Source: Antarcticibacterium sp. 1MA-6-2 (GTDB lineage: Bacteria; Bacteroidota; Bacteroidia; Flavobacteriales; Flavobacteriaceae). From it: a stretch of DNA of 64,000 nucleotides. Below the pieces are notes generated by a model. It was not told where the DNA came from. It saw only the letters and a list, made by a program, of their open reading frames with translations, and did not search any database. A program made the translations under genes and the position numbers. The stretch is from NCBI RefSeq assembly GCF_021535135.1, contig NZ_CP091036.1, positions 3,658,001 to 3,722,000 of the forward strand, written 5' to 3'. Shown here piece by piece: positions 1,341 to 64,000 of the stretch; position 1 is the stretch's first letter; each line of letters opens with the position of its first letter.

Positions 1341-3168
1341 ATGTTTAAAAAGAGAAATAATCAATTCTTAATTATTGTATTGCTGTTAATATTCCTATCA
1401 CCTGCTCTGCAAGCTCAATGGAAACCAGCTGGAGATAAGCTTAAGACCACCTGGGGTGAAAATCTGGATCCCAACAATGTTCTTCCGGAATACCCCCGGC
1501 CAATTATGGAGCGAAACGATTGGCAAAACCTGAATGGACTTTGGGATTATAAAATAACAAAACGAGGAGAGCCACGGCCAACCCAGATGGATGGAAAAAT
1601 TCTGGTTCCTTTTGCGGTTGAATCCAGTCTTTCCGGAGTAATGAAAACCGTGGGTACTGATCAGGAACTTTGGTACAATACCAGCTTTAATGTGCCAAAA
1701 TCGTGGAGAAATAAGAGCATTATGCTCAATTTTGGAGCTGTAGACTGGCGAGCTGATGTTTGGATTAATGACATCAAAATTGGTTCTCACGAAGGTGGTT
1801 TTGATCCTTTTTCTTTTGATATTTCACCTTTCCTTGTAAGTGGGCAATCTCAGAAACTAACTGTTAAAGTATGGGATCCTTCTAATGACGGACCTCAACC
1901 TAGAGGAAAGCAGGTAAAAAATCCTGAAGGAATTTGGTACACACCTGTTACAGGTATTTGGCAAACAGTTTGGCTGGAGCTAAGTAAATAAGAAGAAAAT
2001 TGAAGACCTAAGATTTATCCCTAACATTGATCAAAATGTGGTAAAATTTTCTGCTGAAACTTCCAATTCTGCCTATGGAGATCTTGTTGAAGTTACTGTT
2101 TATGATGGTTCAAAAGAGATCAAAAAGGTGAAAGCATCTGCTGATCAGGATTTTGAAATTTATATAGATAACCCGAAGTTGTGGTCCCCGGAATCTCCTT
2201 TTCTTTATAGAACAACCGTAAAACTTATAAGTGACGGTAAGGTAACAGATGAGGTGAAGAGTTATTTTGCCATGAGGAAAATCTCTAAAAAACGGGACGA
2301 AAACGGCATCGTTAGGATGCAACTTAATAACGAAGATTATTTCCATTTTGGACCACTGGACCAGGGATGGTGGCCTGATGGTTTATACACCGCCCCAACA
2401 GACGAAGCTCTTAAATATGATATCGTAAAAACCAAAGAAATGGGTTTCAACATGATTCGTAAGCACGTTAAAGTAGAACCTGCAAGATGGTACACGCACT
2501 GTGATGAACTTGGAATTCTGGTTTGGCAGGATATGCCAAATGGTGATGCTCAACCCAATTGGCAAATGAGAAAATACTTTGAAGGGAATGAACTTCAAAG
2601 ATCGGCAGAATCAGAAGCTATTTTCCGAAAAGAATGGAAGAACATTATGGATTACCTGTACTCTTATCCCAGTATAGTGGTGTGGGTACCTTTTAATGAA
2701 GCCTGGGGACAATTCAAAACTGAAGAAATTACTGAGTGGACGAAGAATTACGATCCTTCCAGGTTGGTAAACTCTGCCAGTGGCGGGAATCATTTCCAAA
2801 CAGGAGATATTCTTGATCTTCATAATTATCCAGATCCTTCCTTATACCTTTATGACGCGCAAAGAGTAACAGTTTTGGGAGAATACGGTGGAATAGGCCT
2901 GGCTTTGGAGGACCACCTGTGGGCAACCGACAGGAACTGGGGTTATGTAGAATTTAAAAATTCAAAAGAAGTTACCGACCAGTATGTGAAATTTGCTGAA
3001 AAACTGGAGCGCCTGGTGAAAACTGGATTTTCTGGGGCGGTGTATACTCAAACCACCGATGTTGAAGGAGAGGTGAATGGTTTGATGACTTATGACAGAA
3101 AAGTAGATAAGTTGGATATCGAAAGAATAAGACAAGCGAACCAGGAAGTCATTAATGCCTTAGATTAA
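1341..3168 (+). CDS. Glycoside hydrolase family 2 enzyme (frame interrupted)
   Basis: About 608 residues once the frame is restored: signal peptide ending LQAQ, jelly-roll sugar-binding domain (W-DYKI, LWYNTSF), immunoglobulin-like middle domain, and a TIM barrel. The acid/base Glu lies in VPFNEAWGQ (about residue 453) and the likely nucleophile Glu in VLGEYGG (about residue 514). GH2 includes beta-galactosidases, beta-xylosidases and alpha-L-arabinopyranosidases; the specificity is not readable here, but a periplasmic side-chain enzyme fits the locus. The frame breaks at 1980-1984: CTAAG gives a stop eight bases on, and replacing TA by C restores the conserved [12 protein letters not shown]. 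This is one of the recurrent lesions described in the findings. It is followed after 16 bases by a GH43 gene. Confidence 0.85.
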
Positions 3169-3184
3169 AGTATTTCTCCATTAA

Positions 3185-4784
3185 ATGAAGAACTTTTATT
3201 TTATCATCCTGGGTTTAGTAGCCATAATGATTGTTTCCTGTAAACAAGATCATTCGGCTGCTGAACCAGTTGATGAAGCTGCGGTAAGTTTAAATTATTC
3301 GAATCCCGTAATTTCCGGAGATTTCGCAGACCCTTCAGTTATTCGGGTAGAGGATACGTACTATGCTGTTGGTACATCATCAGAATGGGCGCCACATTTT
3401 CCCTTATTCACTTCAAAAGATCTGAGAACCTGGGAACAGCAATCTTATGCATTACCTGAAACACCCGAGTGGGCATCTTCCTCTTTTTGGGCGCCTGAAT
3501 TATTCCATTACAACAACACCTTTTATTTGTACTACGTGGCGAAAAGGAAAAGTGATGGTATCTCCTGTATTGGAGTAGCAACTTCTAAAGATCCACTCCA
3601 GGGTTTTGAAGATCAGGGTGTACTATTATCCTATGGGAATGAAGCCATAGATCCTTTTATTATAGAAGATGAGGATCAGCTTTACCTTAGCTGGAAAGCT
3701 TATGGCCTTGCAGAAAGGCCAATAGAAATTCTTGCTGCAAAACTTTCAAAAGATGGTTTGGAAGTGGAAGGTGAACCTTTTTCGTTATTAAAAGATGAGA
3801 ATTCCCGCGGAATTGAGGGGCAATACATAATTAAAAAGGATAATTTTTATTACCTCTTTTATTCTGAAGGTGCTTGCTGTGGCAGAAACTGTGATTACGA
3901 TATTCGGGTAGCCCGGGCAGAATCTTTTTCCGGTCCGTATCAAATTTATAAAGGTAATCCCATTCTGAAGGAAAATAAAGAGTGGAAGTGTCCCGGGCAT
4001 GGAACTATGGTTCAGGCTGAAGACGGGAGGTGGTTTTATATGTATCATGCCTACAGTCAGGAAGACGATGTTTATACCAGTAGACAGGCGTTGTTAGACG
4101 AAATTAGCTGGGATCAGGATTCAGGTTGGCCGCAATTTAAAAGTGCAGATGCTCCTTCCTCCGTGGCAGATATTTCTGAGCAGGCAGAGAAGCAAAAAGT
4201 CAATAACTCCTTTCGGGATGATTTTAAGTCTTCTTCTCTTTCTCCTGTTTGGCAATGGGATTTTAGAAATGCTGAGCCTGAAGTAAAACTGGAAGATGGG
4301 AACCTTATTTTATCAGGAAATACTAAAGAGGATAACAAGGCAGGAACAGTTCTCACTGTAAGGCTTGGCTTTTGGTGATTATGAAATTAGCACCGAAGTG
4401 ATAAACAGAAACCCTTCCTATAAAGGACTGGTTTTATATGGAGATGCAAATCAGGCAGTACTTTTTGGACTAGAGGCAGGTAAACTTCAGCTAGTGGAAA
4501 TAAAAGATAACGTGAAAACTGTTTTAGCTGAAGAAGCTATTAGTTCAGAAGCAGCTTTGAACATAAAAATGCTGGTTGAAGATGGTTATAAATGCAGGTT
4601 CTTTTGGAGCCTGAGTGAAGATCAATGGAAGGAAATCCAGGGTGCCACTACCGATTTCTATGATGGCAATTATCTTCCGCAATGGGACAGGAGCGCCAGG
4701 CCCGGCTTGTTCCATAATGGAAGTAATCAGGAGCTTACGAAATTTTCATTTTTTGCTATCAGCTATAACATTGAAGAATTATGA
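3185..4784 (+). CDS. GH43 lipoprotein with C-terminal beta-sandwich (frame interrupted)
   Basis: About 533 residues. SPII signal with lipidation Cys in MIVSCKQ, then a five-bladed GH43 propeller with the catalytic triad visible: base Asp in GDFADPS, pKa-modulating Asp in AIDPFII and acid Glu in RGIEGQY. A C-terminal beta-xylosidase-type sandwich domain starts near SFRDDF and WQWDFRN. Activity is probably beta-xylosidase or alpha-L-arabinofuranosidase. The frame shifts by +1 near 4358-4366 (GTAAGGCTTGG); both halves are needed for the C-terminal domain. The stop overlaps the next start (ATGA at 4781), indicating translational coupling. Confidence 0.85.
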
Positions 4785-5818: not shown

Positions 5819-5853
5819 ATAAGATGATTATTAATAGCTAAAAAAAGAGAAAA

Positions 5854-6882: not shown

Positions 6883-6951
6883 GCAGGAAGAAGTAGATCT
6901 AATTAAAAAATTGAACAAAGAAGCTTCCGAATAATCAAATTAAAGGATAGA

Positions 6952-8205: not shown

Positions 8206-8214
8206 ATTTTTGTT

Positions 8215-10687: not shown

Positions 10688-12851
10688 ATGAAAACACTTC
10701 TGTCCTGCTTGTTTTTGAGCCTGGTAATTTTTATGATTTCCTGTCAAACGGAAAAGTCGCAGGTATTGAACATTCAGAATGTAATAATTCCAGATACCAG
10801 CTCTACGAACTCAAATTATTTAAGTAACCGTTCTCCTCTCACATCGAGTGTCCTTATAAAACTCCCGGTAGGAGCAGTCACACCCGAAAACTGGCTGAAG
10901 GTCGCTCTGGAGAGACAGGCCAATGGGTTGATGGGAAACCTGGGAGAAATCAGTGCCTGGCTTCAAGAAGAAGACAATGCCTGGCTTTCAGAAGACGGAA
11001 CAGGATCCTGGGGTTGGGAAGAAGTACCTTACTGGCTTAAAGGATATGGCAATACAGCCTATATTTTGAAAGATGAGGAAATGATTGCGGAAACCAAAAA
11101 ATGGATAGAAGCTGCGCTTTCGAGTCAGCGGCCCGATGGAAATTTTGGCCCCAAGATGATCGGTAAGGATGGGACTCAGGATTTCTGGTCTAATATGATC
11201 ATGTTATATTGCCTGCAATCTTACTATGAATATAGTGGTGATGAGTGGGTAATAAATTTTATGTCCAGGTATTTTAAATACCAGTTACAGGTGCCTGATG
11301 AAGAATTCTTATCTAAAAGTCATTACTGGCAACGCATAAGGGGAGGTGATAACCTACATAGTGTCTTTTGGCTCTACAACAGAACAGGGGAGGAATGGCT
11401 TTTGAATTTGGCTGAAAAAATTCACCGGAACACTGCTCCCTGGTCTAAAAGAGACAATACCCTGGAAGAAATAGGAAATTGGAAGGAAACCAGGGAAGGC
11501 ACAGATTGGCCTTCCTGGTATTCTAACCTGGTGGACTGGCATAATGTTAATGTTGCTCAGGGATTTCGTGAACTAAGCACAATATTACCAGTTAAGCCAT
11601 AACGGGGAGGATCTGGAGGCAACGTATGAAAACTTTAGGATAATTAGAGAACATTTTGGCCAGGTACCGGGTGGAATGTTTGGAGCAGATGAAAACGCCC
11701 GACCGGGTTATGATGACCCACGACAGGGGATAGAAACCTGCGGCGTGGTGGAGCAAATGAATTCCAATGAAAATCTTCTACAAATAACGGGAGACATTTT
11801 TTGGGCTGATCATACTGAAGAAATTACCTTTAATACGCTTCCGGCGACAATGATGCCAGATTTTAAAGCTTTAAGGTACATCACCAGTCCTAATATGGTT
11901 CTAAATGATGACCAAAATCACCGTCCGGGAATTATGAACGACGGACCATTTCTTATGATGAATCCTTTTAGTTCACGTTGCTGTCAACACAACCACGGGC
12001 AGGGATGGCCGTATTTAATAGAAAACCTTTGGATGGCTACCCCTGATAATGGTTTGGCTGCAGTCATTTATGCTCCGAGTACTGTTAATGCCAAAGTTGC
12101 TGATGGTAAAGAAGTGACAATTACCTCTGATACCAAATATCCATTTGAGGAGGATCTGGAATTCAAACTAAATTTAGACAGCACAGAAGTTAATTTCCCT
12201 CTGTATCTAAGAATTCCCGGTTGGGCTGCCTCAGCTTCTGTTTCTATCAACAATAAACAAATTCAAGCAACTCCTGAAGCAGGAAAATATCTTCGTATTT
12301 CCCGAAACTGGAAAAATGGAGATGTGGTCAAATTGTCCTTACCAAAAGAATTGAAATTAACCACCTGGGAGAAAAACCACAACAGTATTAGTGTCGCATA
12401 CGGTCCATTGACGTTTTCCCTCAAAATAGGGGAAGATTATATTAAAAAAGAGAGCGATGAAACGGCAATAGGTGATTCCAAATGGCAGGAAGGGGTGAAT
12501 AAGGAGGAATGGCCGTCATTTGAAATACACCCTACAACACCTTGGAATTATGGGCTAATTATAAATAAAGACGATCTTCAGGAATCTTTTACTATTGAGA
12601 ATCGGGCGTGGCCGGAAAATAATTTTCCATTCACGGTTGAATCTGCGCCCATAGTTATTAAGGCTAAAGCTAAAAAAATTCCTTCATGGAAGATAGATGA
12701 ACATGGATTGGCAGGTGAATTAAATGACAGTCCCGTAAAGTCTAATGAACCCGTTGAGACGGTAGAATTAATTCCTATGGGCGCAGCAAGGTTAAGAATA
12801 AGTGCTTTTCCGGTTATTGGAGAGGGAGAGGGAGCAAATGAATGGAAATAA
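10688..12851 (+). CDS. GH127 beta-L-arabinofuranosidase-type protein (frame interrupted)
   Basis: About 720 residues: SPII signal (MISCQTE), an alpha/alpha barrel and C-terminal beta domains. The zinc-binding catalytic site of GH127 is recognisable as ETCGVVEQMN (Glu-x-Cys) and SRCCQHNHG (Cys-Cys). GH127 enzymes release beta-L-arabinofuranose, although this large family also holds other activities. The frame breaks at 11573-11577 (CTAAG): replacing TA by C yields FREPAQYYQLSHN, conserved in the family, and joins both halves. A signature lesion. It overlaps a possible upstream start of the next GH43 gene. Confidence 0.85.
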
Positions 12852-13934: not shown

Positions 13935-14433
13935 ATGGAGCTGAAGAAGTATAATTTCAAAGACGACGGAAAAATTCCCAATAACAAACTCCCTTTATTA
14001 CTCTACAAAGGAGCATTTATCGAAAGCGGAGAAGAAGCTGCGAATATGCTTGAGGAGAACTTTACATCGAACAATTGGAAGAATTCCTGGAGAAATGGAG
14101 TATACGATTTCCACCATTACCACAGCAATACCCACGAAGTACTGGGAGTTTATAGCGGCAAAGCTTTGTTGCACCTTGGTGGGGAAGAAGGAGAGAAAAT
14201 TGAAGTAGTGGCAGGAGATATAATTGTAATTCCTGCCGGAGTTGGCCACAAAAATTTAGGAAGTGAAAATTTTAAAATTGTTGGAGCTTATCCTGATGGA
14301 CGGGACTATAATATGAACTACGGAAAAGAGGGAGAAAGACCTAGCAGCTGATAAGAACATTTCAAAAGTTCCAATTCCTGATACTGATCCTTTCTTCGGA
14401 AAAAAAGAAGGTGTTCCTGAAATTTGGAAATAA
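13935..14433 (+). CDS. Cupin-domain protein (frame interrupted)
   Basis: About 165 residues, no signal peptide. The double-stranded beta-helix is shown by FHHYHSNTHEVLGVYSG and GDIIVIPAGVGHKNL, which contain the metal-binding His residues. The frame is broken at 14340-14344 (CCTAG): replacing TA by G gives GERPAADKNISKVPIP and extends the protein to the stop at 14431-14433, ending in GVPEIWK. Signature lesion at an inferred ACCGGC. Cytoplasmic cupins at the end of sugar loci are often isomerases or of unknown function; no reaction can be assigned. Confidence 0.8.
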
Positions 14434-34008: not shown

Positions 34009-36078
<2,070 letters not shown>

Positions 36079-41674: not shown

Positions 41675-42820
41675 GCTGGTAATAACCTTTATTATTTTGT
41701 TAGCTGTCAGGGCCGGAGCACAAACTCCGGCTTTGGCTGTTGCAGATAGCCTGTTTACTGTAGGAGAGACCGCAAAAGCCATAGAGATGCTGGAAGGTTC
41801 TAACCCTGCCACTATTTCTATCATTCTTAAACTGGCGCAGTATAATGCTGCCAAAGGAAATATTAAAGAAGCAGTAGGATATTATGAAAAAGTCCTGCAC
41901 CAAAATCCTGAAAAAATTTTGGCAACAATAGAGTATGCGAAAGCTCTTGTAAAAGATAATCAGCTAATGAAAGCTGACAGTGTTTACAGGGAATTGAATA
42001 AAAAATATCCTGAAAATGCAAATTTTTACTACCAGCGTGGATTAATAAAGGAGCAGGAACAGGAGAATGATGAAGAGGCCCTGCCCTTCTATAAACTTAC
42101 GATTGAGAAAGACCAGTCTCACCAGCCAGCTTTGTACAAGCTTGCAAAGAATGAGCTTCAAAACAGGAGTTATGACATGGCCAAGAATTACTCCTTAATG
42201 GGACTTGAGCACCATCCGGAGAATGTGTCCTTACTTTCTATTCTTGCTCAGGCATACTCTGCACGGGCATTATATAAAAAAGCTATTCCTCCTTTTGAGA
42301 AACTCGTCGAACTGGGGGAGAAGAGTGAATTTATTTTTACCAGGCTTGGCTACGCTTATCTTCACGAAGGCAATCTGGAAGATGCCATAACAGCTTATAC
42401 CTGAGCGCACTTGAAATTGAGGATAAAAACTTCGGAACTCATTACTCTCTGGGAAAATTATACGCTCTTCAGGGTGAACTTGAAAAATCTGAAGCACATT
42501 TATTAATGGCTATTCTTATAAAAAAACAACCCGTGGATGCAGAATATCTCAGCCTGGGAATAACTCTTAAGTATAAGAAAGAATTTAAGGATGCATTGGA
42601 ATACTTGAATAAAGCTTTGGAAGAAAACCCACAAAATGAACGCGCACTATATGAACGTGCGGTTGTAGCAGATAATTATTTTAAGGATTTATCTACAATT
42701 ATTTCCTACTATCAATCCTATCTCGACAAATATAATTCTATAGGAGATGAGCGCTTGCTGAATTTGGCTGAATCAAGAATTGCAGATCTAAAAAAGCAAC
42801 GTCATTTGGAGGGAGAATAA
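41667..42820 (+). CDS. TPR-repeat protein coupled to BlaR1-TonB gene (frame interrupted)
   Basis: About 384 residues starting GTG AAT AAG inside the end of the preceding gene. Signal peptide (LVITFIILLAVRAGAQ), then at least eight tetratricopeptide repeats (AVGYYEKVLHQNPEKILATI, ALEYLNKALEENPQNERALY). The frame breaks at 42393-42402 (GCTTATACC): one base is missing; restoring GCTGGT gives AITAGYLSALEIEDK, an RCYGGY-type lesion. TPR proteins after M56-TonB genes probably form a periplasmic complex with them; the role is inference. Confidence 0.82.
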
Positions 42821-43758: not shown

Positions 43759-46700
43759 ATGAGAATAGGAATTCAAAAATTTCCATATCTGACAAAATTG
43801 ACAGTTATAGGACTAATAGTTCAATTTCTGCTTACTACCACTATTTATGCTAATGAAAACGAGCTGAGAGGAGAAGGTGAGCAACAAAAAACTATTAGTG
43901 GAACAGTAATAGCTGCTGAGGATAACTTAGGTATACCGGGAGTAAATGTGATCGTTAAGGGTACTTCTATAGGAACTGTTACTAATATTGACGGGGAATA
44001 TGAAATCACTGTGCCCGCGTCAGCTACTACCTTAACCTTCAGTTTTATAGGTTTTGAGACTGTAGAAAGGGAAATTGGAGATAACACTGAGATTGATGTC
44101 ATAATGCAAACCGATCAAAGTTCTCTTGAAGAAGTTGTCATCGTAGGATACGGAACGCAGAGGAAGGAAACTGTTGTGGGTGCCGTTGCTCAAACCACTA
44201 GCGAAGTCCTGGAACGTACCGGTGGAGTATCAGATCTTGGTGCTGCAATGACAGGTGCTTTACCCGGTTTAGTAACCACTGCCAGTACAGGTATACCCGG
44301 AGGGGAAAGTCCCCAAATTGTGATAAGGGGCCAAAATAGCTGGAATGGTGCATCTCCTTTGATTTTGGTGGATGGAGTAGAGCGGCCTGAATTTTTCAAT
44401 AACATGTCTATAAGTTCCGTTGCGTCAATATCTGTTTTGAAAGATGCTTCGGCTACCGCGGTATTTGGTTCCCGGGGTGCCAATGGGGTAATCATTGTAA
44501 CGACAAAAAGAGGACTTACAGGTAAGGCAGAGATCACAGCCAATTTTAGTTCAACCGTGAAGGCGGTTTCTAAATTGCCTGGTAAATATGATGCTTACGA
44601 TGCCATTGGGGTTAGGAACAGGGCAATTGAATATGAACTTTCCGACAATCCCTCCAGCTGGGGCGATATTATTCCTGAAGCAACGAGGTATAAGTACCTT
44701 AATCCGGCCAATATTGAGGAAATGGAACGTTATCCTAATGTTAATTGGCAGGAAGTATTGTTTAAGGATTATGCCATGGCTTACAACGCTAACGTAAACA
44801 TCCGCGGAGGGACAGAATTCGTTAAATATTTTGCTACTCTCGATTTTCAGAATGAAGGAGATTTGTTTCGGGATTTCACCAATAACAGGGATTACGATCC
44901 TGGTTATGAATATAATCGCCTTAATTTCCGTAGTAATTTAGATTTTCAACTTACATCCACTACTAAATTACGAACTGACCTTGGAGGTACCTACGGTGTC
45001 CGGAGAAGTCCCTGGGGTGGGGGTAATGATTATGGTTTTTGGGATGCCGCTTATCGGGGTGATCCTACCCTTTTTATGCCACAATATTCAGACGGTCTCT
45101 ATGGGTACTATGCTCCTAATATACAACTAGGGTATAACTCTGTCCGGATTCTGGCCATTAGTGGAGTAGAAATGGAAACTACTGCCCGTATCAATACAAC
45201 CTTTGTGCTTGATCAGGATTTAGGAATGCTATTAGAAGGATTGACTTTTAATGGTACACTGGCTGTGGATAACACCTTTATAGAAAATGACAGGGGAGTT
45301 AATGACCAGTTCAATGCCGCCCAGGAAAAGTGGATTGATCCCGAAACCGGGCGGGTAGTTCTTGCCCAGGGTGTAAGTTCTACCACAGGGCTGGATTTTT
45401 ATACTCCAGGCCCACAATGGTCTCCTGCCAGTGGAAGTGTTGGTGCGGCCTGGCGTAAGATTTTCTATCAGTTAAAGCTGGATTATGCAACTACCATTGC
45501 AGAGGATCATAACTTTAACCTGATGGGACTGATGAACTAAGCAGAAAGATGCCAGGGGCAATGGAATTCCAGAATTTCGCGAAGACTGGGTTTTCCGGAC
45601 TACCTATAATTATAGAGGAAAATATATGCTGGAGTATAACGGTGCTTACAATGGATCGGAAAAATTTGCTCCTGAATATCGGTTTGCTTTCTTCTCTTCA
45701 GGAGGACTTGCCTGGATGATATCTGAAGAAAATTTTATGGAATCGGTTTCTTTCCTGGACACCTGGAAATTGAGAGCTAATTATGGAGAAGTGGGAGACG
45801 ACCAAATAGGTGCCCGGTTTCTGTTCATGGATGAGTGGGCTTACGGAGGAAATTCTCAACTTGGCTTAGTTGGTGAGGGTGGTGAAAGAAGCCCTTATAC
45901 CTGGTACACACAGGAACAGGTGGGTAACCCTTTTGTTCGTTGGGAGACAGTATACAAGACTAACCTGGGTATGGATTTTGGTTTTTTCCAGGGTTTAATT
46001 GATGGGTCTGTAGACGTCTTCAGGAATGACAGAAAGGATATCCTTATGAGGGATGACAGGGCAGTACCTACCTATTTTGGAGTAAATGCTCCTGCAGCCA
46101 ACCTGGGTCGGGTACGTACGCAGGGTTATGAAATTACTGTAGGACTTGACCACACCTTTACAAATGGATTAAACGTATGGGGCGACTTTACAATGACTCA
46201 TGCAGAGAATGAAATAATTGATCGGGATGATCCCGCCTTGTTACCCGACTATCAAAAGCAGGCGGGATATGCACTGGGGCAGACCCGTACCCATATTGCA
46301 AGTGGGTATTACAATACTTGGGACGAACTATATGCGAGCACCGTCCACAATACCAATAACCTCAATAAAATTCCCGGGAACTACCAGATCCTTGACTATA
46401 ATGGTGATGGAGTAATTGATACTTTTGATGCAGCCCCTTTCGGATATTCCGGCGTGCCGGAGAATACCTTTAGCACCAATCTGGGATTTGGGTGGAAAGG
46501 CTTTAGCGTATTTGCGCAGTTCTACGGAGTAAATAATGTTACACGTAATGTACCGCTTACCAGCCTTGGAGGACAAACCAATACAGTTTTTGAGCAGGGT
46601 ACCTACTGGTCCCAAGACAACCCAAATGCCGATACGCCAATGCCACGTTGGAGTTCGGTTCCTCCCGGAAACTTTATGGGGAACCGGTATTTCTACGATG

Positions 46701-46934: not shown

Positions 46935-48824
46935 ATGAAAGTATATATAAAAATTATATTTAAGAGCATCTTTTTTATAGCAATGCTCATGATAGTTTCC
47001 TGTGAGGACTATCTGGAGAGATCACCAGAATCGGTTTTATCAGAAGAAACTGCCTTTCGCAATTTTCAAAATTTTCAGGGATTTACAGAAGAGCTTTATA
47101 TGGTGGTTCCAAACTTTACTACCACTTACTATACTTCTTCCTGGAACTGGGGGGACGATGAGATCCAATCTCCTGGTCCTAACTTTCATTTTGGGGTTAA
47201 AATTGAAAATGGAGACTTCTGGGGGTGGCAAGCTGAGCATGACGGCTGGGGTGCTTAAGCTGGATGGACGGGAGTGCTGCTACCGACGGTAGTGGAGGCT
47301 TATGGGCGCTTGCCTGGTATGGAATTAGAAAAGCAAATATTGGTCTGGCCAATCTCGACCTCATGACAGATGCTACGCAGGAGGAAAGAGACCTGATTGA
47401 AGGTCAACTACTATTTTTCAGGGGCTGGTGTCATTTTCAATTGATCCAGTACTTTGGAGGCATGCCTTACATCGACAGGGTGCTCCCTTCAGATGAACCA
47501 TTATGTGAACCCCGTCTGAGTTATCATGAGAGTGCAGACCGCGTTGCAACAGACTTAAGAGCGGCTGCTGACCTTTTGCCGATCAATTGGGACAATACAG
47601 TGGCAGGTAGGCGTACACTTGGAAAAAACGGTTTGCGCATCAATAAGATAATGGCCCTGGGTTATTTAGGCAAAAACCTCCTTTGGGCTGCCAGTCCCTT
47701 AATGAATTATGAATCAACCGGAAGTAGGACTTATAATTCGGAATATGCTAAACGGGCGGCAGTTGCATTCGGGGAATTATTGTCTTTGGTCGAAGCTGGG
47801 GAAACTCAATATGCCCTGCTTCCTTTTGACAGGTACAGTGAGAATTTTTATACAACCTAGTCAGAACTGGGCTATCCCGGGTGGTACTGAAGCTATTTTC
47901 CGCCCAACTTATATTTCTGCTAATGCTTCGAACTGGAGAATTAGCGCTCAATATCTGCCTTCTGTAGTAAATGACCATGGGGATCCTTCCAGATTTTATC
48001 CTACGGCCAATTATGTTAATTACTATGGTATGGCCAATGGATTGCCCTTGCCTGATGATATAACACAGGCCGATCCTGAATCTGGATATGATCCTCAACA
48101 TCCCTGGGAAGGACGTGATCCCCGTTTTTACCACGATATTCTTTATGACGGGGTACAGGTTGTCGAAGGATCCATACCTCCAGGTGAACAAAATCCGCAG
48201 CAGCTACGTTATGCAAGTCTTTTCACTGGAGGTGCTTACCGTGATGAGATTAACGGAAGCCGTACTGGTTATGCTAATCATAAATTTATTCCCTTAACAG
48301 CCAACCGATTTGACCGAAGGTTTGATTATGGCTATGCCCTTCACCTTATGGTGCCTTATATGCGTTTGGCCGATGTTTACCTGATGTATGCCGAGGCTAC
48401 CGCAGTTGGTTATAATCCCACTAGTACTGCGGGAGGTTTTGGCCTAACAGCAGTGGAAGCGGTGAATGTTGTGCGGGCCAGGGCTGGTGTAGATCCTGTA
48501 CATAGTCAATTTACTGGCTCTGTAGATGCTTTCTTGCCGGAACTGAGACGTGAACGTGCCGTGGAACTGGCTTTTGAAAGTCACCGCTTTAATGATCTTC
48601 GCCGTTGGTTGTTGTTAATTGAAGAGCCTTATACCATTAAAACATCCCACGAATTTGACAGGGCAGCATCCTTTGATCCGGAAACCCCCAGGGAAAACCG
48701 TGTACTGAATCTCAGAGAAGAAGTCATTCTTGAACGAAATTTCAGTGAGAAACACTACTGGTTGCCTCTAAAAGTATCGGATGTTAGTATATGTCCAGAT
48801 TTCTACCAAAATCCGGGATGGTAG
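46935..48824 (+). CDS. SusD/RagB-type xylan-binding lipoprotein, first copy (frame interrupted)
   Basis: About 629 residues with an SPII signal (IVSCEDYLER). Helical SusD repeats are visible (ADVYLMYAEATAVGYN, RRERAVELAFESHRFNDLRR). It would bind polysaccharide at the surface over the SusC barrel encoded just upstream. Two lesions: 47253-47260 (GCTTAAGC; one base missing, WGA-x-SWMDGSAATDG) and 47856-47860 (CCTAG; replacing TA by G gives FYTTGQNWAIPGG). Both fit RCCRGY-type sites. The position corresponds to XusB. Confidence 0.88.
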
Positions 48825-48885: not shown

Positions 48886-51800
48886 ATGAAATATATAACA
48901 CTAAAAATTGCTTTGTGCGCTATTGTGATTCTACTTCCTGTATTGCTTTTCGCACAAACTACCACAAAGATAAATGTAATGGCGGTGGTACGAACGGAGG
49001 AAGGATTGCCTGTTAAGGGAGCTGTTGTAAGTAGTGAGCAGGATGATGTTTCAACGCTTACTGATAGTCTTGGAAATTTTTCTTTGGAAGTCTCGCCTAA
49101 TGCTATCCTGTCAATTAGTACTGCTGAATATGGAACTAAATTTGCTGCTGCAACTCAGGACCTGCAGGAAATTGTGCTAAGCTCAGGTATGGAGCTGGTA
49201 CAGGTAGCTTATCGTAAAGAAGAAAAGGAGGACCTTTTGGGGGGCATATCTTATATAAATATGCCTGAATTACTGGATAAAAATTATATCACTTATCCTC
49301 TGGACAATATGGAAGCCCTGGTAGCGGGTTTTCACGGTAACCTTTGGGGTATGGACGAGTACCTGGTGCTGGTAGATGGTGTACCTCGTGATGTAGGTAG
49401 TGTTCAACCTACTGCAATTGATCAAATTACTTTTCTAAAAGGAGTTTCCGCGGTAGCATTGTATGGTAGCCGGGCTGCCAAAGGCGCGATCCTTATCACC
49501 ACGAAAAGGGGGAAATAGGCGAACAAACGGTAGATGTCAGGGTTAATGCAGGGCTTTCTGTTCCGAAAAGTTATCCCAGGTTTCTGGGTTCTGCGGAATA
49601 TATGACGCTTTACAATGAAGCCCGGGAAAATGACGGGCTTGGCACCTTATTTTCTGAGGAAGAAATCTATAACCACGCTGCAGGTATTAATCCATACCGC
49701 TACCCTAACGTGGATTATTATTCAGACGATTATTTAAAAAAAGCTTATAGCCGCTATGATGGAACGGTGGAAATTGCTGGTGGAAACCAAAAGGCCCGTT
49801 ACTATACTAACATGGGGTTTCTTACAGAAGGTTCGCTACTGGATTTTGGTGAAGCTGAGAACAATAAAAATCAAAGGTTCAATATCCGGGGTAACGTAGA
49901 CATGGAATTGAGTGATTATATTACTGCCAATGTAGACTTAGGTGCTATATTCTCCAATAATATAGGTGTCAACACCGACTATTGGGGAGGTGCTGCTAGT
50001 TTAAGACCACACTAGTTTACCCCGCTTATCCCAATCAGTATGATCGAAGAAAGTGATGAGGCTTCCTGGGACCTGATAGAAGGGACCGATAATTTAATAG
50101 GCGGGCAGTACCTGCTAGGAGGTACGCAACTGGATCAAAGCAATCCAATTGCAGGTATCTATGCTTAGTGGTTCTAATACATTTACAAGCTAAGCAATTT
50201 CAATTCAATGCTGGTGTTGATGCCGACTTACAAAATGTATTGGAAGGCTTGTCTTTTAGTTCCATGTTTGGGATAGATTATGCCACCTCATATACTCAAG
50301 CCTTTAATAATGAATATGCAGTATTTCAGCCAAACTGGACCAACTACGCGGGAACTGATATGATAAGTTCTCTAACTCAGTATGGACAGGATGCCCGCTC
50401 GGGTGATCTAAATGTTAGCAATAGCTCGTATCGTCAAACACTGGCCTTTTCCGGACAATTGAACTATGAAACTCTGTTTGCTAATGATCATAATATAACT
50501 GCAATGTTAATTGCGGGAGGCTTTCAAAGGTCTCAATCTGGTATCTACCAGGGCATCAATAATGCTAATCTTGGTTTACATCTGGGATATGACTTTAAAA
50601 ATAAATATTTCGCACAATTTAATGGTGCCATGATATACTCTACGAGAGTACCGGAAGACAACAGGACTGCATTTTCTCCTACATTATCTTTAGGCTGGAG
50701 GATTAGCGAAGAAGACTTTTTGGCGTCTTCCTCTGTTATCAACAATTTAAAGTTGTCTGTCTCGGCGGGTATATTACATACCGATTTGGATATTGATGAT
50801 TATTACCTTTATGAAGCTATCTATACACAAACAGATGGAGCCTGGTACGGATGGGCAGATTTATCTGCGCCCGCCCGAAGCACCGATTCACGTCGGGGTG
50901 AGAATCTGGGTCTAACTTTGCCAAAGCGTGAGGAAATTAGCCTTGGTCTGGATGCTGCTCTTTTTAATAATTTTTTGGTCTTTAATGGAAATATTTTTAT
51001 GAGCAGGATGACAGGGCTTGTAGATCAACTCTCTTCTTTATATCCCAATTATTTTCAAACCGGATGGCCAAATTCATCTTTTATCCCGTATGTGAATTAT
51101 AATGAAGATATACGCTCAGGATTTGATTTTAGTCTGAACCTGAATAAACGCACCGGAGAAGTAGACTGGACGGTTGGGTTAGTGGGAACTTATTACACAA
51201 CTGAAGCTTCCAAACGAGCCGAATTTTTTGAGAATGAATATCAGAACAGGCAGGGAAGACCCGTAGATGCCATTTGGGGTTTAGAAAGTGATGGCTTCTT
51301 TGAAAGTGCTGAAGATATTGCTAACTCACCAGAATCTGCGTTTGGTGCAGTGCAAGCGGGGGATATTAAATATATAGACCAAAATGAAGATGGTGTAATT
51401 AATGCCCAGGACGAGGTATACCTTGGAAGAGGCGGTTGGGTAAGTTCTCCTTTTACCGGGGGAGTTAACTTAACGGCAAAATGGAAGAACCTCACGTTCT
51501 TTGCTCTTGGAGTTGCTCGTATGGGTGCAATAGGTATAAAAAACAACAATTATTTCTGGGTAAACGGTCAGGATAAATATTCAGAGGTTGTTAGGAATCG
51601 TTGGACTGAAGAAACTATGGAAACAGCTACATATCCACGACTCACAACCGGGGGCGGGGATAATAACTTCCGGAATTCAGATTTTTGGCAGTACAGCACC
51701 AACCGTTTCGATCTGGCAAGGGTTCAGGTTTCCTATACATTTCCGGAATATTTTTTCGGCGGCGATTTGGTAAAGGAATTCGGGGTGTATCTAAATGGAG

Positions 51801-54803: not shown

Positions 54804-56944
54804 ATGAAAAGTTTATATAAAATAGGATTTTGTGTGGCAGGATTATCTCTGATAACCTCGTGCACAGATTATGAACCCCTTGATAATTTTCAGGTAGAAA
54901 AGCCTGAAAGCATAGCAAATCAGGAAGAGTTAAACAGTTACGATGCTCTAAAAACTTATTTGGGAGAAGATGCCTCTAATATCACTTTGGGCGCAGCAGT
55001 TAGCATCCAGGAATATAACACTAAGGGGGTAATGTATCGCCTCGTCAATTCAAATTTCCAGGAGGTGACGGCGGGATATGGAATGAAACATGGGGCCGTG
55101 GTAAGGGAGGACGGAAGTCTTAATCTAGCGGATGTCGGGAAATTTCTCGAAACTGCAAATGCAGCCGGATTATCTGTTTATGGCCATACCCTTGTGTGGC
55201 ATGCCAACCAAAATGCTGAATACCTGAACAGCACTATTGCGCCAACGGTAACAGGAGGCGGACCAAGCTGGGATGAGGTTACCAGTGCTGACTTTGAAAC
55301 AGATGAGGCAGCAAATTATGAGAGTAACGTAAACGCTGTAATTTCTTATACGGCTGACGGAGAAGGTGCAGACGGTGAGGGCAGGGCATTGGCTGTGACC
55401 AATGAAGAAGTTCGGGCAAACGATTGGGAAAGCCAGTTCTTTTTAAAGTTTTCTCCGCCTATGGTAGTAGGGGAAGAATATGAACTTACTATGGATGTTC
55501 GTTCAGATGTTGATGCTTCTTTTGCTACGCAGGCTCATATTCAACCTGGCGAATATAAACACTGGGATTTTTTTGGTGCTATTCCCTCCTCACCTGAATG
55601 GACAACTTTCACCAAAAGAATTATTGTCTCTGAAGAAGTTGCAGGGACAAGTACTATTGCTTTTAATCTCGGCACTGTTGCCACTACTTATTACTTTGAT
55701 AACATAAGCCTGAAAAAATATAACGAGGAGGGCAGCGGTGGTGGTGGTCCCGCATTGGATCCAAGTGTAATTACCAATTCTGATTTTGAAAATAGCATCG
55801 ACGGCTGGGGTGGCTGGGGAAATGGCTCTACCAGGGAGCGCTCAGCAGAAGGTGAAGGCTATGGTGGTGCTGGTTATGCTTTTACTTTTACAAATCCCTC
55901 CGCTGTGAATTTTTGGGAGGCACAGATTGCTTATGATTTTCCAATATTAGAAATGGGGGCAACTTATGTATTGAATTTTAAAGTAAAGGCAAATACTGCT
56001 TAGTACTATTCGTGCCGAGATACAATCGCCATCTGATTATTCAAGTGATGCGTTTGGGACATTTAATGTATCGGAAGACTGGGAGGAGATTACTTTGCAA
56101 ACGACGATTACCAAGGATGACCGTTCACGATTTATTATTAGCTATGGTGACTTTGCAGGCACGGTTTATATTGATGACGTAACTCTTTCGCGTGTGAACC
56201 CCAATGCTGGAGGTGTTATAGAGAAAACACCGGAAGAAAAGGAGGAGATAATTACCGCCGAAATGGAAAGATGGATTGCGGGCATGATGGAAGTTGCCAA
56301 CGACTATGTTCATGCCTGGGATGTAGTAAATGAACCCATGGACGATGGAAATCCTTCTGAACTTAAAACAGGTGTTGGAAGGGAATTAGCGGCCGATGAG
56401 TTCTACTGGCAGGACTATTTAGGTAAGGATTATGCAGTAAAGGCATTTAACCTTGCCAGGCAATATGGAGATCCGGACGACCTTTTATTCATAAATGACT
56501 ACAATCTGGAATATAACCTGGATAAAACCCGTGGTATTATTGATTTTGTTGAATACATCGAAAGTCAGGGTGCAACCGTCGATGGAATAGGCACTCAAAT
56601 GCATATAAGTATAGATTCTGATAAAGATAAAATAGCAGAAATGTTCCAGCTTCTTGCTGCAACCGGGAAACTGGTAAAAGTTTCTGAACTGGATGTAAGA
56701 ACAAATGTTTCTGAACCTACAGCTGAAATTTTACAACAACAAGCCGATATGTATAGGTATGTCGTGGAGGCTTACGAGGAAAATGTTCCACAGTCGCAAA
56801 GATATGGTATTACTGTTTGGGGAGTTACTGATAGTCCTGCAAATGCAAACTGGCTTCCGGGAGAATTTCAGGGCTTATGGACGGTTAATTTAAACAGGAA
56901 ACCTACCTTATGCAAGTTTTGCAGATGCACTGAAAAATCTATAA
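54804..56944 (+). CDS. GH10 endo-1,4-beta-xylanase with inserted CBM pair (frame interrupted)
   Basis: About 713 residues. SPII signal (LITSCTDYEP), then the first part of a GH10 barrel (GAAVSIQEYNTKGVMYRLVN, VYGHTLVWHANQN). The barrel is interrupted by two tandem CBM4/22-like modules (residues about 150-300 and 315-470, each with a YYFDNISL or VYIDDVTL end), and resumes at ITAEMERWIAGMM with the acid/base Glu in WDVVNEPMDD and nucleophile Glu in VKVSELDVRTN. This is the Xyn10C/BACINT_04215 architecture. Lesions: 55999-56003 (CTTAG; GCT GGT restores KANTAGTIRAEIQ; signature) and 56907-56911 (an extra T; KPTYASFADALKNL then stop at 56942). Confidence 0.9.
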
Positions 56945-57330: not shown

Positions 57331-58490
57331 ATGACCTTTAAAAATTGCAAACGTCTCTTGTTTGTTTTGCTTGCCTGTGTTTGTGTATCACTGGTAAGCT
57401 GTAAAAGTAATAAGGACCTGGATCTCACAACAGTATCAGGCGATAAAACTTTGAAGGGGGCATTTGAAAATAATTTCCATATTGGAACCACCCTTAACGC
57501 ATGGCAAATTAGGGGAAGACAGCCGGAGGAAGTAAAAGTTGCAAAGGAACATTTCAATTCTATTGTTGCTGAAAATATAATGAAAAGCGGCAGAATTCAA
57601 CCTAAACAAGGGGAATTTGACTTTTCTCTTGCCGATGAATTTGTAAAATTTGGTGAAGAAAACAATATGCATATTCATGGACATACTTTAGTATGGCATT
57701 CCCAAACTCCCGACTGGTTTTTTGTTGGGGAAGATGGAAATACAGTTTCTAAAGAAGTCCTTATTAAACGTATTAAAGATCATATTCAAACGGTAGTAGG
57801 GCGGTATAAGGGCAGAGTCCATTCCTGGGATGTGGTAAACGAAGCCATTGAAGATGACGGAAGTTTTAGAAAGAGTAAATTCTATGAGATAATAGGTGAG
57901 GATTTTATCAGGCTGGCTTTTGAATTTGCCCATGAGGCTGATCCTAATGCGCAGCTTTATTATAATGACTATTCTATGGCCAATCCCCGAAAACGGGACG
58001 GTGTTGTCAAAATGGTTAAAAAGCTACAAAGTGAAAATATTCCAATTCACGGAATAGGAATGCAGGGACATATAGGCTTAAATAATCCTGATATTAGAGA
58101 ATTTGAAAAAAGCCTGGAAGCTTATGGGAATCTTGGTAAAGTTATGATTACAGAACTTGATCTCAGTGTTTTACCATCCCCCTGGGGAGATGCTTAAGCG
58201 CAGAAATTTCAGATAATTATGAATATGAAGATAAGATGAACCCGTTTCCCAACGGCTTACCTCAAGAAGTGGAGCAACAATTCACTAACAGATATTTGGA
58301 GTTTTTTAAACTTTTCCTGAAACATCAGGATAAAATTTCACGCGTCGCTCTTTGGGGAGTGAACGATGGAAATTCCTGGAAAAACAACTGGCCAGTAAGA
58401 GGAAGGACCGATTATCCCCTGCTGTTCGATCGTGAAAACAAGGCAAAGCCAGTGGTAAATGCACTTATTGAACTAGCTTCAGCAAAATAA
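57331..58490 (+). CDS. GH10 endo-1,4-beta-xylanase (frame interrupted)
   Basis: About 386 residues: SPII signal (LVSCKSN), then a single GH10 barrel with [28 protein letters not shown], the acid/base Glu in [26 protein letters not shown] and the nucleophile Glu in [10 protein letters not shown]. It cuts the xylan backbone to short xylo-oligosaccharides, probably in the periplasm or at the inner leaflet of the outer membrane. The frame breaks at 58192-58199 (GCTTAAGC; one base missing, [14 protein letters not shown]), an RCCRGY-type lesion. It ends ALIELASAK, 21 bases before the GH97 gene. Confidence 0.9.
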
Positions 58491-58511
58491 CCTGATGAAA
58501 TTCTAAAATTA

Positions 58512-60447: not shown

Positions 60448-60488
60448 ATAATACTCCAGGTTAATAATCAGGATTGTTACAAACTTAT

Positions 60489-62066
60489 ATGAAAATTAAC
60501 AACTTACTGCTTATACTATTAAGTCTGTTTTTAGGCAATGTATCTTCAGCACAAAAGAAGGCTCATAATCCTATTATTCATGCCGATGTTCCCGATATGT
60601 CTATAATCAGAGTAGGGAATAATTATTACATGAGCAGTACCACAATGCATATGAGTCCCGGGTTACCAATAATGAAATCTAGTGATTTGGTTAACTGGGA
60701 AATAGTCAATTATGCCTATAATATTTTAGGAAACGAAGATGCTCTTCAATTGGAAAATGGTGAAGATGCCTATGGCGCTTAGTTCCTGGGCAAGTTCCTT
60801 GCGGTACCATAAAGGAGTTTTTTATGTGACCACTTTTTCCAAAAATACAGGTAAGACCCATATTTTTAAAACAAAGGATATTGAAAATGGTTCATGGGAA
60901 GAAATTTCCTTTTCTCCCTCATACCACGATAATACATTATTTTTTGATGATGACGGTAAAGTTTATCTCATTTGGGGAGGTGGGAATTTAAGAATGGTTG
61001 AGCTTAAGGATGATCTTACAGGGGTGAAAGAAGGAACAGAAAGAGTGTTAATAGAGAATGCTACTGAGCCTATTGGATCAAAAATTATTCTACCTGCAGA
61101 AGGTTCTCAATTATTTAAGGTTAAAGGTAAATACTATTTATTCAATATCGCCTGGCCAAGGGAGGGGATGAGAACAGTCATCATTCATAGAGCCGATAAG
61201 ATTACTGGTCCTTACGAAGGAAAGCTTGCTTTTCAGGATAAAGGCGTGGCACAGGGAGGCTTAATTGACACACCAAACGGGGATTGGTTTGCTTACTTGT
61301 TTCGGGATTATGGCGCAGTAGGACGAATTCCTTATCTGGTACCTACAGTGGGAAGATGCCTGGCTAGGTTTTAGGGGAAAATGGAAAAGTGCCCGAAAAT
61401 TTAAATTTACCAGCGAGTGAAGGTTTAATTCCAGGAATTGTGGCCTCAGATGATTTTAGCAGAAAGTCTGGTGAAAGAGATTTACCCCTGGTTTGGCAAT
61501 GGAACCATAATCCGCAACAGGATTATTGGTCTTTAAAAGATAAAGAGGGTTACTTAAGATTAACTACTGATAGGGTTGACACCTCTTTTTTGAATACAAG
61601 AAATACCCTTACGCAACGAACTGTTGGTCCAGAGAGTACTGCAATTACTAAAGTTGACATTGCAGGAATGAAGGAAGGGGATTATGCTGGACTTGGACTA
61701 CTTCAGAAAAATTTTGGGTTCGTTGGTGCCAAGATCGAAAACAATCTTAAGCATGTTGTTATGATCAATGGTGCTTCTGAAAAACCTTTGGAGGTTGAGA
61801 GAATCCCGTTGGAACAGGAGGTGCTATATCTCAAAGCTGTGTGTGATTTTAGGAATAGGAAAGATACTGCGGAATTTTATTATAGTCTGGATGGTAGAAA
61901 CTGGAAATCAATAGGTAACGAACTTAAAATGTCTTACACGCTTCCTCATTTTATGGGCTATAGATTTGCTTTGTTTACTTACGCTACTCAGGAGGCGGGA
62001 GGCTTTGCTGATTTTGATTACTTTAAAATAGAGGATGCCTCTACCTTAAACAGGAAGGAAAAATAG
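60489..62066 (+). CDS. GH43 enzyme with C-terminal beta-sandwich (frame interrupted)
   Basis: About 525 residues from ATG at 60489 (an upstream in-frame TTG at 60474 is unlikely). Signal peptide (GNVSSAQ), GH43 propeller with base Asp in IIHADVPDMSI, Asp in SYHDNTLFFDDDG and Glu in PAEGSQLFKV, then a GH43_C2-like sandwich (SDDFSRKSG, PLVWQWNHNP). It resembles GH43_12-type arabinofuranosidases/xylosidases. Lesions: 60778-60782 (CTTAG; GCT GGT restores DAYGAGSWASS; signature), about 61342-61347 (two bases missing in the VPVQW region or one extra) and 61364-61368 (CTAGG; CCG GTT restores AWPVLGENGKVP; signature). Confidence 0.86.
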
Positions 62067-62161
62067 TTAATATATCCCGTAATGTCCCGGAACTAAGTGA
62101 TTTTGGAGAAATAGATTTTTTAATTAACCAGCTCAAATCTTTGAGAGATGAATATTAATAA

Positions 62162-64000
62162 ATGAAGATGCTTATGAACATTATTTTCAGGTACCGCATT
62201 TTCGTATTAATAGGAGTTTTTTGCCTGTTATCGACCTTCCAGGTGCAGAGCCAGGAAAAGTCTGCATTAACACTTTGGTATGATAAGCCTGCAGAAAAAT
62301 GGGTGGAGGCACTTCCAATAGGAAACGGTCGTTTGGGCGCAATGGTTTATGGAAATCCTGTTGAGGAGGTAATTCAATTAAATGAAAATACGGTTTGGGC
62401 AGGACAGCCTAACAGAAATGATAATCCCGAAGCCAAAAAATACTTATCAAAGGTACAGGAACTTTTATTTGAAGGGAAGAGCGGGGAAGCCCAGGAGCTG
62501 GTCAATCAACATTTTATAAGCAAAACCTCTCACGGTATGCCGTATCAAACCGCGGGAAACTTAAAATTATCATTTCCCGATCATCAAAATTACTCCGATT
62601 ATTATCGTGAACTCAATTTAGAAAATGCGGTCACCACAACCCGGTATAAAGTTGGAGAGGTAGGCTATGAAACTCAAGTTTTCGCTTCACATCCAGATCA
62701 GGTAATTGTTGTTCAAATCAAAGCAGATAAATTGGGATCGCTCAATTTCACGGCAACAATGGATCGTCCCGAAGGCGCTATTATTTCTACTACCGATAAT
62801 GGTGAATTAAAACTACACGGTAAGACCAGTGATTTTGAAGGAGTGGAAGGGAAAATAAAATTTCTGGCCATTACAAAAATTAAAAATGAAGGTGGAGAAA
62901 TAATTGCAGAAAACGATGTTCTTAAAATTCAGAATGCAGACAATGTCACCATTTATATTTCCATCGCCTCTAATTTTAAAAATTATAAAGACTTAAGTAT
63001 AGATGAAATTGAAAAAGCGGCAGGATACCTTTCTGCTTTAAAAAATAAAGATCAGGAAAAAATCTATCAAACACACCTCGAAGATTATCAATCTTATTTT
63101 AATAGAGTCTCCTTTGATTTAGGTCAAACCGCAGCAGCAAAATTACCCACAGATGAAAGGATCAAAAATTTTAAAACCGGAGATGATCCTGCCCTTGTCT
63201 CCCTCTATTTTCAGTTTGGTCGTTATCTTTTAATCACTTCTTCCAGGCAGGGAACCCAGCCAGCAAACCTTCAGGGAATATGGAATGACCAGCTAACTCC
63301 TGCCTGGGATAGTAAATACACTGTCAATATTAATGCAGAAATGAATTACTGGCCTGCGGAGATCACCAATTTAGCCGAATTCCATGAACCCCTTATACAA
63401 ATGGTTAAGGAGCTTTCAGAAGCCGGAAGAGAAACCGCCCGGGAGATGTATGATGCAGAGGGTTGGGTGATGCACCACAATACAGATATCTGGCGTATGA
63501 CTAAGTGCAATAGACGGCTCTTATTGGGGAATGTGGCCTATGGGTGGAGTGTGGCTGTCTCAGCACTTATTTGATAAATATGAATTTTCAGGCGATAAGG
63601 AATTTTTAAAATCTGTATACCCCGTAGTAAAAGATGCTTCTAAATTCTACCTGGATTTTATGATCAAAGAACCGGAAAATAACTGGTTAGTAGTATCCCC
63701 TTCCATTTCTCCGGAACATGCACCTACAGCACATCCGGAATCTTCTTTAACCTATGGGACGACAATGGATAATCAATTGATATTCGATCTTTTTTCTAAA
63801 ACCGCAAGAGCTGCAGAAATTCTTGGAGATGATAAGGAGTTTATAGCTGCCTTAAATAATAAAATTAAGCACTTGCCTCCTATGCATATTGGAAGTTGGG
63901 GACAGTTACAGGAATGGATAAAAGATTGGGATGATCCTGAGACTGATCATAGACACGTGTCTCACCTCTACGGTCTTTACCCTTCAAATCAAATTTCTCC
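62162..64000 (+). CDS. GH95 alpha-L-fucosidase/galactosidase, partial (frame interrupted)
   Basis: The first 612 or so residues of a GH95 enzyme; the gene runs off the window. Signal peptide (FQVQSQ), N-terminal beta domain opening LTLWYDKPAEKWVEALPIGN, then an alpha/alpha barrel. Catalytic-site motifs are TVNINAEMNYWPAE (the Asn pair), VSPSISPEHAP and DPETDHRHVSHLYGLYPS. GH95 releases alpha-1,2-L-fucose or alpha-L-galactose from glycans, the latter occurring in some xylan side chains. The frame breaks at 63501-63505 (CTAAG); replacing TA by C gives WRMTSAIDGSYWGMWPMGG. A signature lesion at an inferred ACCAGT. Confidence 0.87.

What the first reader, a model, noticed from the sequence alone, without database searches (positions are those of the whole stretch)
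1980..63505. Recurrent, sequence-specific lesions at inferred RCCRGY sites break about 15 genes
Seen: 15 frame breaks share one product word, R-CTA-R-G-Y or its complement, at 1980, 11573, 14340, 21692, 22338, 27903, 40340, 45537, 47856, 50164, 50190, 55999, 60778, 61364 and 63501. In each, replacing TA by one C (or G on the other strand) restores conserved protein such as WLEPVN, FREPAQYYQLSHN, RATAGGGTDERY and GAGSWASS. In five more (21537, 42393, 47253, 49516, 58192) the frame is one base short and is cured by assuming RCC became TA. Two variants (20464, 50013) also fit. So 22 of about 34 lesions converge on RCCRGY. Random decay or homopolymer error would not do this. Inference: a consensus error at modified cytosine (for example 4mC/5mC in that motif) in a long-read assembly, or a strand-asymmetric mutational process at a methylated site. 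Many other RCCRGY sites (for example 1424, 1679, 44216) are intact, so it is partial.
Basis: partly seen in the sequence, partly recalled or inferred. Interest (0 to 1): 0.85.

Follow-up and report, generated by a model that had tools for sequence, protein, structure and literature searches.

The report
Assembly errors at methylated RCCGGY sites
About twenty genes in this stretch look broken most likely because a methylated DNA word, RCCGGY, was misread during sequencing all over this genome; the breaks are an assembly artefact rather than biology, and they point to the enzyme that marks the word.

Summary
The window keeps 2 RCCGGY among 184 CCGG; 400 kb elsewhere in the genome keep 8 of 1045; same-genus genomes keep 154/513, 147/560, 59/247. 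Product words are R-C-(Y)-TA-(R)-G-Y. A frame scan blind to the motif, outside the window, finds such a word at 57 of 170 breaks and the flank-swapped control at 0 of 170. rpoB and rpoC, found in no other copy, are split at these words, as are rplA and rplK; one word lies in a tRNA-Gly T-arm. No viable cell should carry this, so the lesions are consensus errors. The one C5 methyltransferase found is 65% identical to a protein named NmeDIP and 51-54% to enzymes beside Cfr10I/Bse634I-type, RCCGGY-class nucleases. A genome with the same system keeps RCCGGY (78 of 280). Best reading: uncorrected long-read, probably nanopore, basecalling error at methylated RCCGGY. Reads, platform and signal could not be checked.

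The parts
1979..1985 (.). product word GCTAAGT at a frame break
11572..11578 (.). product word ACTAAGC at a frame break
14339..14345 (.). product word ACCTAGC near an ORF end; no HMM call
20465..20469 (.). one-base-short variant word at a frame break (HMM call 20470)
   Evidence: site identity inferred
21537..21544 (.). product word GCTTAAGC (+2) at a frame break
21689..21695 (.). product word ACTAAGC at a frame break
22338..22344 (.). product word GCTTAGT; no HMM call
27902..27908 (.). product word GCTAGGT at a frame break
40339..40345 (.). product word GCTTAGT at a frame break
42399..42406 (.). variant product word ACCTGAGC (+2) at a frame break; reader gave 42393
44218..44223 (.). surviving ACCGGT, one of two RCCGGY left in the window
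45536..45542 (.). product word ACTAAGC at a frame break
46683..46688 (.). surviving ACCGGT, the other RCCGGY left in the window
47253..47260 (.). product word GCTTAAGC (+2) at a frame break
47855..47861 (.). product word ACCTAGT at a frame break; L006 (Salinimicrobium) has ACCGGC here
49516..49520 (.). one-base-short variant word at an ORF end (nearest HMM call 49496)
   Evidence: site identity inferred
50011..50016 (.). length-neutral product ACTAGT at an ORF end; L006 has ACCGGT here
50163..50169 (.). product word GCTTAGT at a frame break; L006 has GCCGGC here
50189..50195 (.). product word GCTAAGC, 26 bases after the previous one; no separate HMM call
55998..56004 (.). product word GCTTAGT at a frame break; L006 has GCCGGT here
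58192..58199 (.). product word GCTTAAGC (+2) at a frame break; L006 has GCCGGC here
60777..60783 (.). product word GCTTAGT at a frame break
61363..61369 (.). product word GCTAGGT at a frame break
63500..63506 (.). product word ACTAAGT at a frame break

Best explanation
The lesions are not in the cell; they are in the assembly. The host carries a type II restriction-modification system whose C5 cytosine methyltransferase modifies the palindrome RCCGGY on both strands (by analogy with characterised RCCGGY enzymes, m5C at the first C). The genome was assembled from single-molecule reads, most likely nanopore, with a basecaller that did not know this modified context. The altered signal was read as R-C-(Y)-TA-(R)-G-Y, usually one or two bases too long, and consensus polishing kept the error. 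Wherever a misread site changes length inside a gene the frame breaks. Shown here: the site, its near-total loss in the sampled genome, the product words, the breaks in indispensable genes and in a tRNA, and the methyltransferase and its family. Inferred: that this enzyme marks RCCGGY, that the base is m5C, that the platform is nanopore, and that basecalling is the step that fails.
For: (1) CCGG with RY flanks is the strongest RY deficit among 27,025 word centres in 464 kb (10 seen, 116.9 expected, z -14.3). Own 8/1045 and 2/184 against G011 154/513, G003 147/560, G002 59/247 and L006 21/73. (2) Blind frame scan, 171 breaks outside the window: the top-ranked words are product words or parts of them, e.g. 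GCTTA/TAAGC 45/171 vs 220/6000 controls, CTAAG/CTTAG 37/171 vs 129/6000, GCTTAAGC 10 vs 1. Repeat with controls: own 57/170 breaks carry a product word, relatives 0/31, 1/13, 2/22; swapped control words at a break 0/144. (3) Where four relatives have RCCGGY in a 40 kb block, own has a product word in 18 of 75 alignments (10 places; 13 are +1, 4 are +2, 1 is neutral) and RCCGGY in 0 of 75; other NCCGGN keep CCGG in 85 of 242; 26 more RCCGGY alignments with flanks under 70% alike were left out. (4) rpoB is split at profile 2-255 / 252-1238 and rpoC at 1-386 / 382-1146 (its second part in two matched stretches), no other copies listed; both breaks lie on product words, where relatives have RCCGGY (rpoC: G003, G001; rpoB: G001, G005). 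rplK 1-87 / 75-139 and rplA 1-88 / 82-225 likewise. tRNA-Gly is 75 nt with the word in its T-arm against 74 nt in G003 and G001. (5) One PF00145 enzyme found in the genome, beside a type II REase and Vsr; 65% to a protein named modification methylase NmeDIP; 54% and 51% to enzymes next to Bse634I-family REases. The NmeDI system is RCCGGY with Vsr, its m5C seen with MspJI (PMC7973814, passages). (6) G183 has the same system (methyltransferase 63%, REase 76%) yet RCCGGY 78 of 280.
Against: No reads, platform or modification signal could be inspected. The motif-centred errors in the paper I read most of were mismatches, not indels (PMC10687267, Results part 1 of 2). PMC12392509 (passages) finds only some occurrences of a methylated motif affected, whereas here about 98% of the expected sites are gone. 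57 of 75 aligned relative RCCGGY meet neither RCCGGY nor a product word; most are other substitutions, 5 are RCTGGY/RCCAGY, which could be real deamination or length-neutral miscalls. Genuine product-like words exist: nusG and tuf in L086 are intact with one each. 112 of 170 breaks carry no product word even with the variant allowed; 90 of these have an ATG and a stop within 30 bases (natural overlaps possible), and poly-A is mildly enriched. Distant G621, which has the methyltransferase family (61%), shows 45 product words against 35 controls in 111 kb, unlike the other genomes, although it keeps RCCGGY 48 of 270. Whether G183 methylates its sites is unknown. PMC7973814 notes that M.NmeDI was also reported as RCCGGB. 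Specificity of this exact enzyme was not tested.
Confidence: 0.95

Rival explanations
1. Real lesions: a strand-specific or repair-linked mutational process at methylated RCCGGY (deamination with faulty Vsr repair, or self-restriction and end joining) has inserted bases throughout the chromosome.
For: The site is a target of the methyltransferase family, and a Vsr gene lies near it. 5 of 75 aligned positions show RCTGGY or RCCAGY, and some L006 sites do too, as deamination would give.
Against: rpoB and rpoC have no other copy; rplA, rplK and a tRNA are also hit. Deamination changes C to T and does not add one or two bases (general knowledge). G183 with the same R-M system keeps RCCGGY, 78 of 280.
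Confidence: 0.02
2. Ordinary restriction avoidance explains the RCCGGY deficit, and the frame breaks are unrelated gene decay or homopolymer error.
For: Palindromes cut by a host's own R-M system can be avoided (recalled, general knowledge). Residual breaks show mild poly-A enrichment.
Against: Breaks concentrate on one word family, 58 of 162 against 0 of 144 controls, at places where relatives have RCCGGY. G183 and G621, with the same methyltransferase family, still hold the word (78 of 280; 48 of 270).
Confidence: 0.02
3. Programmed recoding: the words are frameshift or readthrough signals and the proteins are made whole.
For: Profile coordinates run on across the broken frames.
Against: The word also lies in a tRNA gene, takes +1, +2, neutral and apparently -1 forms, and comes with the loss of RCCGGY. 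Relatives hardly show it at breaks: 0/34, 1/19, 2/40 words.
Confidence: 0.005

Closest known systems
Modification-mediated nanopore errors (Chiou et al. 2023, PMC10687267: abstract, Results part 1 of 2 and Discussion read)
   Same: Many errors left after polishing, centred on short lineage-specific motifs (GCAGC, GCTGG), linked to modification systems and removed by whole-genome amplification.
   Different: There the errors were mismatches and homopolymer indels were not the cause; here the words at breaks are one or two bases too long, in the palindrome RCCGGY, so genes are broken rather than altered. Raw reads were available there, not here.
NmeDI restriction-modification system (RCCGGY) of Neisseria meningitidis (PMC7973814 and PMC4081073, passages only)
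   Same: C5 methyltransferase, type II REase and Vsr together; a homologue at 65% identity is named modification methylase NmeDIP.
   Different: Different phylum. The M.NmeDI and R.NmeDI sequences were not in hand, so direct identity, and the double-sided cleavage reported for NmeDI, were not tested.
Cfr10I/Bse634I-type R-M systems (Moraxella osloensis plasmid, Nostoc sp. HK-01 plasmid)
   Same: Methyltransferases 51-54% identical over about 90% of the length.
   Different: Their REase is PF07832; the REase here has no Pfam hit (PF27126 as precomputed for its homologues), and PF07832 was not found in the genome (that search's controls were silent too).
VchM, orphan m5C methyltransferase of Vibrio cholerae (PMC8559950, passages)
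   Same: Methylates RCCGGY, first cytosine.
   Different: Orphan, without REase; sequence not compared here.

Membership tests
Modification-mediated long-read consensus error | Errors centre on one short motif across the genome | tested here: met
   (400 kb sample plus window)
Modification-mediated long-read consensus error | Correct motif present at the same places in relatives | tested here: met
   L006: 5 of 10 alignable listed sites have RCCGGY, none RCCAGY; 18 of 75 relative RCCGGY alignments meet a product word, 0 of 75 RCCGGY
Modification-mediated long-read consensus error | Errors hit indispensable genes and RNA genes alike | tested here: met
   rpoB, rpoC, rplA, rplK, tRNA-Gly
Modification-mediated long-read consensus error | Host encodes a methyltransferase for that motif | tested here: inconclusive
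   met by homology; activity not tested
Modification-mediated long-read consensus error | Errors vanish with short reads or amplified DNA | not testable with these tools
   no reads available
NmeDI-type RCCGGY R-M system | C5 methyltransferase + REase + Vsr gene set | tested here: met
   published gene set from PMC7973814
NmeDI-type RCCGGY R-M system | Recognises RCCGGY | tested here: inconclusive
   agrees with the lost word and with family neighbours; no enzyme assay
NmeDI-type RCCGGY R-M system | REase cuts on both sides of the site (12/7 RCCGGY 7/12) | not testable with these tools
   published property, PMC4081073
Cfr10I/Bse634I R-M system | REase of family PF07832 | tested here: not met
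   no PF07832 in the neighbouring REase or the genome (controls silent)
Pseudogene decay | Indispensable single-copy genes remain intact | tested here: not met

The most novel reading that the evidence does not exclude
The RCCGGY mark in this host is not plain m5C but a further or unusual modification. It displaces the reading signal so strongly that misread sites are mostly one or two bases too long, unlike the mismatches described for other motifs.
Probability: 0.06. Interest if true: 0.6.

Novelty: new member of a known kind. Interest (0 to 1): 0.35.

Why it matters
A single-contig genome held in the species collection carries, scaling 57 motif-linked breaks in 400 kb, roughly 600 false frame breaks, including rpoB and rpoC, so its pseudogene counts, protein predictions and any pathway reading of this sugar-degradation region are unreliable. 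The error pattern also reads out a methylation specificity from an assembly alone. Loss of one palindrome together with stereotyped insertion words is a simple screen for other affected public genomes and a way to suggest targets for methyltransferases.

Tried and rejected
RCCRGY as the site: rejected, because RCCAGY is not depleted and L006 has RCCGGY at 5 and RCCAGY at 0 of 10 alignable listed sites.

m4C by a PF01555 enzyme: no match in the genome (11 of 14 control genomes rang). Other methylase families were not searched.

Bse634I-type REase in this genome: none found, but the controls were silent too, so this alone shows little.

Solved structures: no sequence relative of the REase; the methyltransferase's best matches (HaeIII, HhaI enzymes) cover only its first half, which says nothing on specificity.

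Counting product words genome-wide without a coding frame is weak: natural RCTWAGY words are common, and the flank scan did not list the product words among its 25 largest RY excesses.

Second error motif: none stood out among 112 residual breaks except A/T-rich words.

Literature searches. Of the three papers holding both RCCGGY and nanopore, passages of two concern VchM, not errors; the third was seen in the listing only. A report of RCCGGY read errors outside this library, or in papers I saw only in listings, is possible.

Full report
What was checked. 20 of 22 carry a word of the form R-C-[C/T/-]-TA-[A/G/-]-G-Y or its variant RCCTGAGY, and two (20464, 49516) are one-base-short variants. 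The window is bases 3658001-3722000 of a 4.38 Mb single-contig genome. Its nearest named match is Salinimicrobium profundisediminis MT39 (L006, 85% for the query protein; 77-78% in DNA over three aligned stretches), so the host is probably a member of the Flavobacteriaceae (inference).

The true site. CCGG flanked by R and Y is almost missing: 2 of 184 CCGG in the window, both ACCGGT, while the twelve other flank pairs number 10 to 24 each. In 20 stretches of 20 kb spread over the genome it is 8 of 1045. Same-genus genomes: G011 154/513, G003 147/560, G002 59/247; L006 21/73. From the ratios in G011, G003, G002 and G183 the 400 kb should hold 325 to 445 RCCGGY. In a scan of 27,025 word centres of 3-8 bases, CCGG has the largest RY deficit. 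RCCAGY is not depleted (67 against 53.9 expected), so RCCRGY was a near miss.

Frame breaks follow the word, also outside the window. A 7-state coding HMM trained on the genome's own ORFs, with no motif input, called 207 frame changes in 464 kb, 36 of them in the window. Among the 171 calls outside the window the top-ranked words of 5 to 8 bases are product words or parts of them. A repeat, trained anew on each genome, with three same-genus controls: own 170 calls in 400 kb, 57 with a product word; G011 0 of 31, G003 1 of 13, G002 2 of 22. Product words in coding DNA at a break: own 58 of 162; swapped flanks (Y..R) 0 of 144; relatives 0 of 34, 1 of 19, 2 of 40. Words with one wrong flank reached 23 of 267, which fell to 9 of 236 once those nested in a longer product word were dropped. 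Forms at breaks are led by GCTTAAGC, ACTAAGC, ACTAAGT, GCTAAGC, ACCTAAGT and ACCTAAGC.

Relatives show what should be there. In L006, 10 of the 22 places are alignable; 5 have RCCGGY and none has RCCAGY. Seen from L006, 15 RCCGGY could be aligned: the window has a product word at 5, RCCGGY at 0 and other words at 10. In a 40 kb block around rpoB, four relatives give 75 RCCGGY alignments (26 more with poor flanks were left out): own has a product word in 18 (10 distinct places; 13 one base longer, 4 two longer, 1 neutral), RCCGGY in 0, RCTGGY or RCCAGY in 5, and other words in the rest. For other NCCGGN, CCGG is kept in 85 of 242.

The lesions are very unlikely to be real. rpoB is found only as two pieces in different frames (profile 2-255 and 252-1238 of 1238), and rpoC as 1-386 in one frame and 382-1071 plus 1045-1146 of 1147 in another. 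Both breaks lie on product words, and at both some relatives have RCCGGY. rplK and rplA are split at product words too; second copies of these two were not searched for. A tRNA-Gly gene has the word in its T-arm and is one base longer than in two relatives; ARAGORN still calls it. That rpoB and rpoC cannot be lost is general knowledge. Counter-examples exist: nusG and tuf in the same block contain a product-like word each and are intact, so not every such word is a lesion.

The source of the mark. One PF00145 methyltransferase was found in the genome, none of PF01555. It lies at about 3.945 Mb with a 359-aa protein called type II restriction enzyme by PADLOC, a Vsr endonuclease and a phage-type integrase. 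It is 65% identical to a protein named modification methylase NmeDIP, 54% to a Nostoc enzyme beside a Cfr10I-type REase and 51% to a Moraxella enzyme beside a Cfr10I/Bse634I REase; both REases match PF07832, and Cfr10I recognises RCCGGY (PMC4081073, passage). The published NmeDI system is RCCGGY with Vsr; in that strain m5C was detected with MspJI but not by SMRT sequencing, and RCCGGB is mentioned as another reported specificity (PMC7973814, passages). RCCGGY m5C is also reported for Anabaena and Bacillus strains (PMC8112702, passages) and for Vibrio cholerae VchM (PMC8559950, passages). That this exact enzyme methylates RCCGGY is inferred.

Is the loss caused by the enzyme or by the assembly? 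In a sample of 299 genomes of the family one other, G183, has the methyltransferase at 63% with an REase 76% identical; it keeps RCCGGY, 78 of 280 in 255 kb. In the class sample of 395, G621 (61%) was added and keeps 48 of 270; its product words (45) exceed the swapped control (35), against the pattern in the other genomes, and I have no explanation. So carrying the system does not in itself remove RCCGGY; the loss is peculiar to this assembly among those looked at. Whether G183 and G621 methylate their sites is not known.

Mechanism. Most likely a basecaller not trained for this modified context read each site as C-(Y)TA(R)-G, and polishing kept it. The kind is known: Chiou et al. (PMC10687267; abstract, Results part 1 of 2, Discussion) found up to 5,670 mismatches in a genome, motif-centred, that nearly vanished after amplification; here the words at breaks are insertions. 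Product words exceed the number expected from the R..Y to Y..R ratio of G011, G003, G002 and G183 by roughly 36 per 100 kb (61.2 against about 25), about 1,600 in the genome; with G621's ratio there would be no excess. The HMM count, which does not rest on that ratio, scales from 57 in 400 kb to roughly 600 motif-linked frame breaks.

Limits. No reads, platform record or signal were available. HMM calls include natural overlaps: 90 of 112 residual calls have an ATG and a stop within 30 bases. About 10% of the genome besides the window was sampled.

Noticed in passing
window 34009-35742 (minus): ORF that I read as a RecQ-like helicase (by eye, no profile run) with 29 glutamines in a row near its C-terminal end (count).
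   Followed up: no
L001:381-3974 (genome about 3.944-3.947 Mb): Vsr endonuclease and a tyrosine recombinase lie with the methyltransferase and REase: the R-M system may be a mobile island.
   Followed up: partly
L022-L041: Residual frame breaks without a product word are mildly enriched in poly-A (AAAAAAA 10 of 112 vs 96 of 6000), as a long-read assembly without short-read polishing might show.
   Followed up: partly
L113-L122 (G621): A distant genome with the same methyltransferase family has more product words than swapped controls (45 vs 35 in 111 kb) although RCCGGY is kept (48 of 270).
   Followed up: no
L086:6508-6582 (minus): tRNA-Gly(TCC) with one extra base in the T-arm; ARAGORN still calls it, so tRNA counts alone would not reveal the error.
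   Followed up: yes
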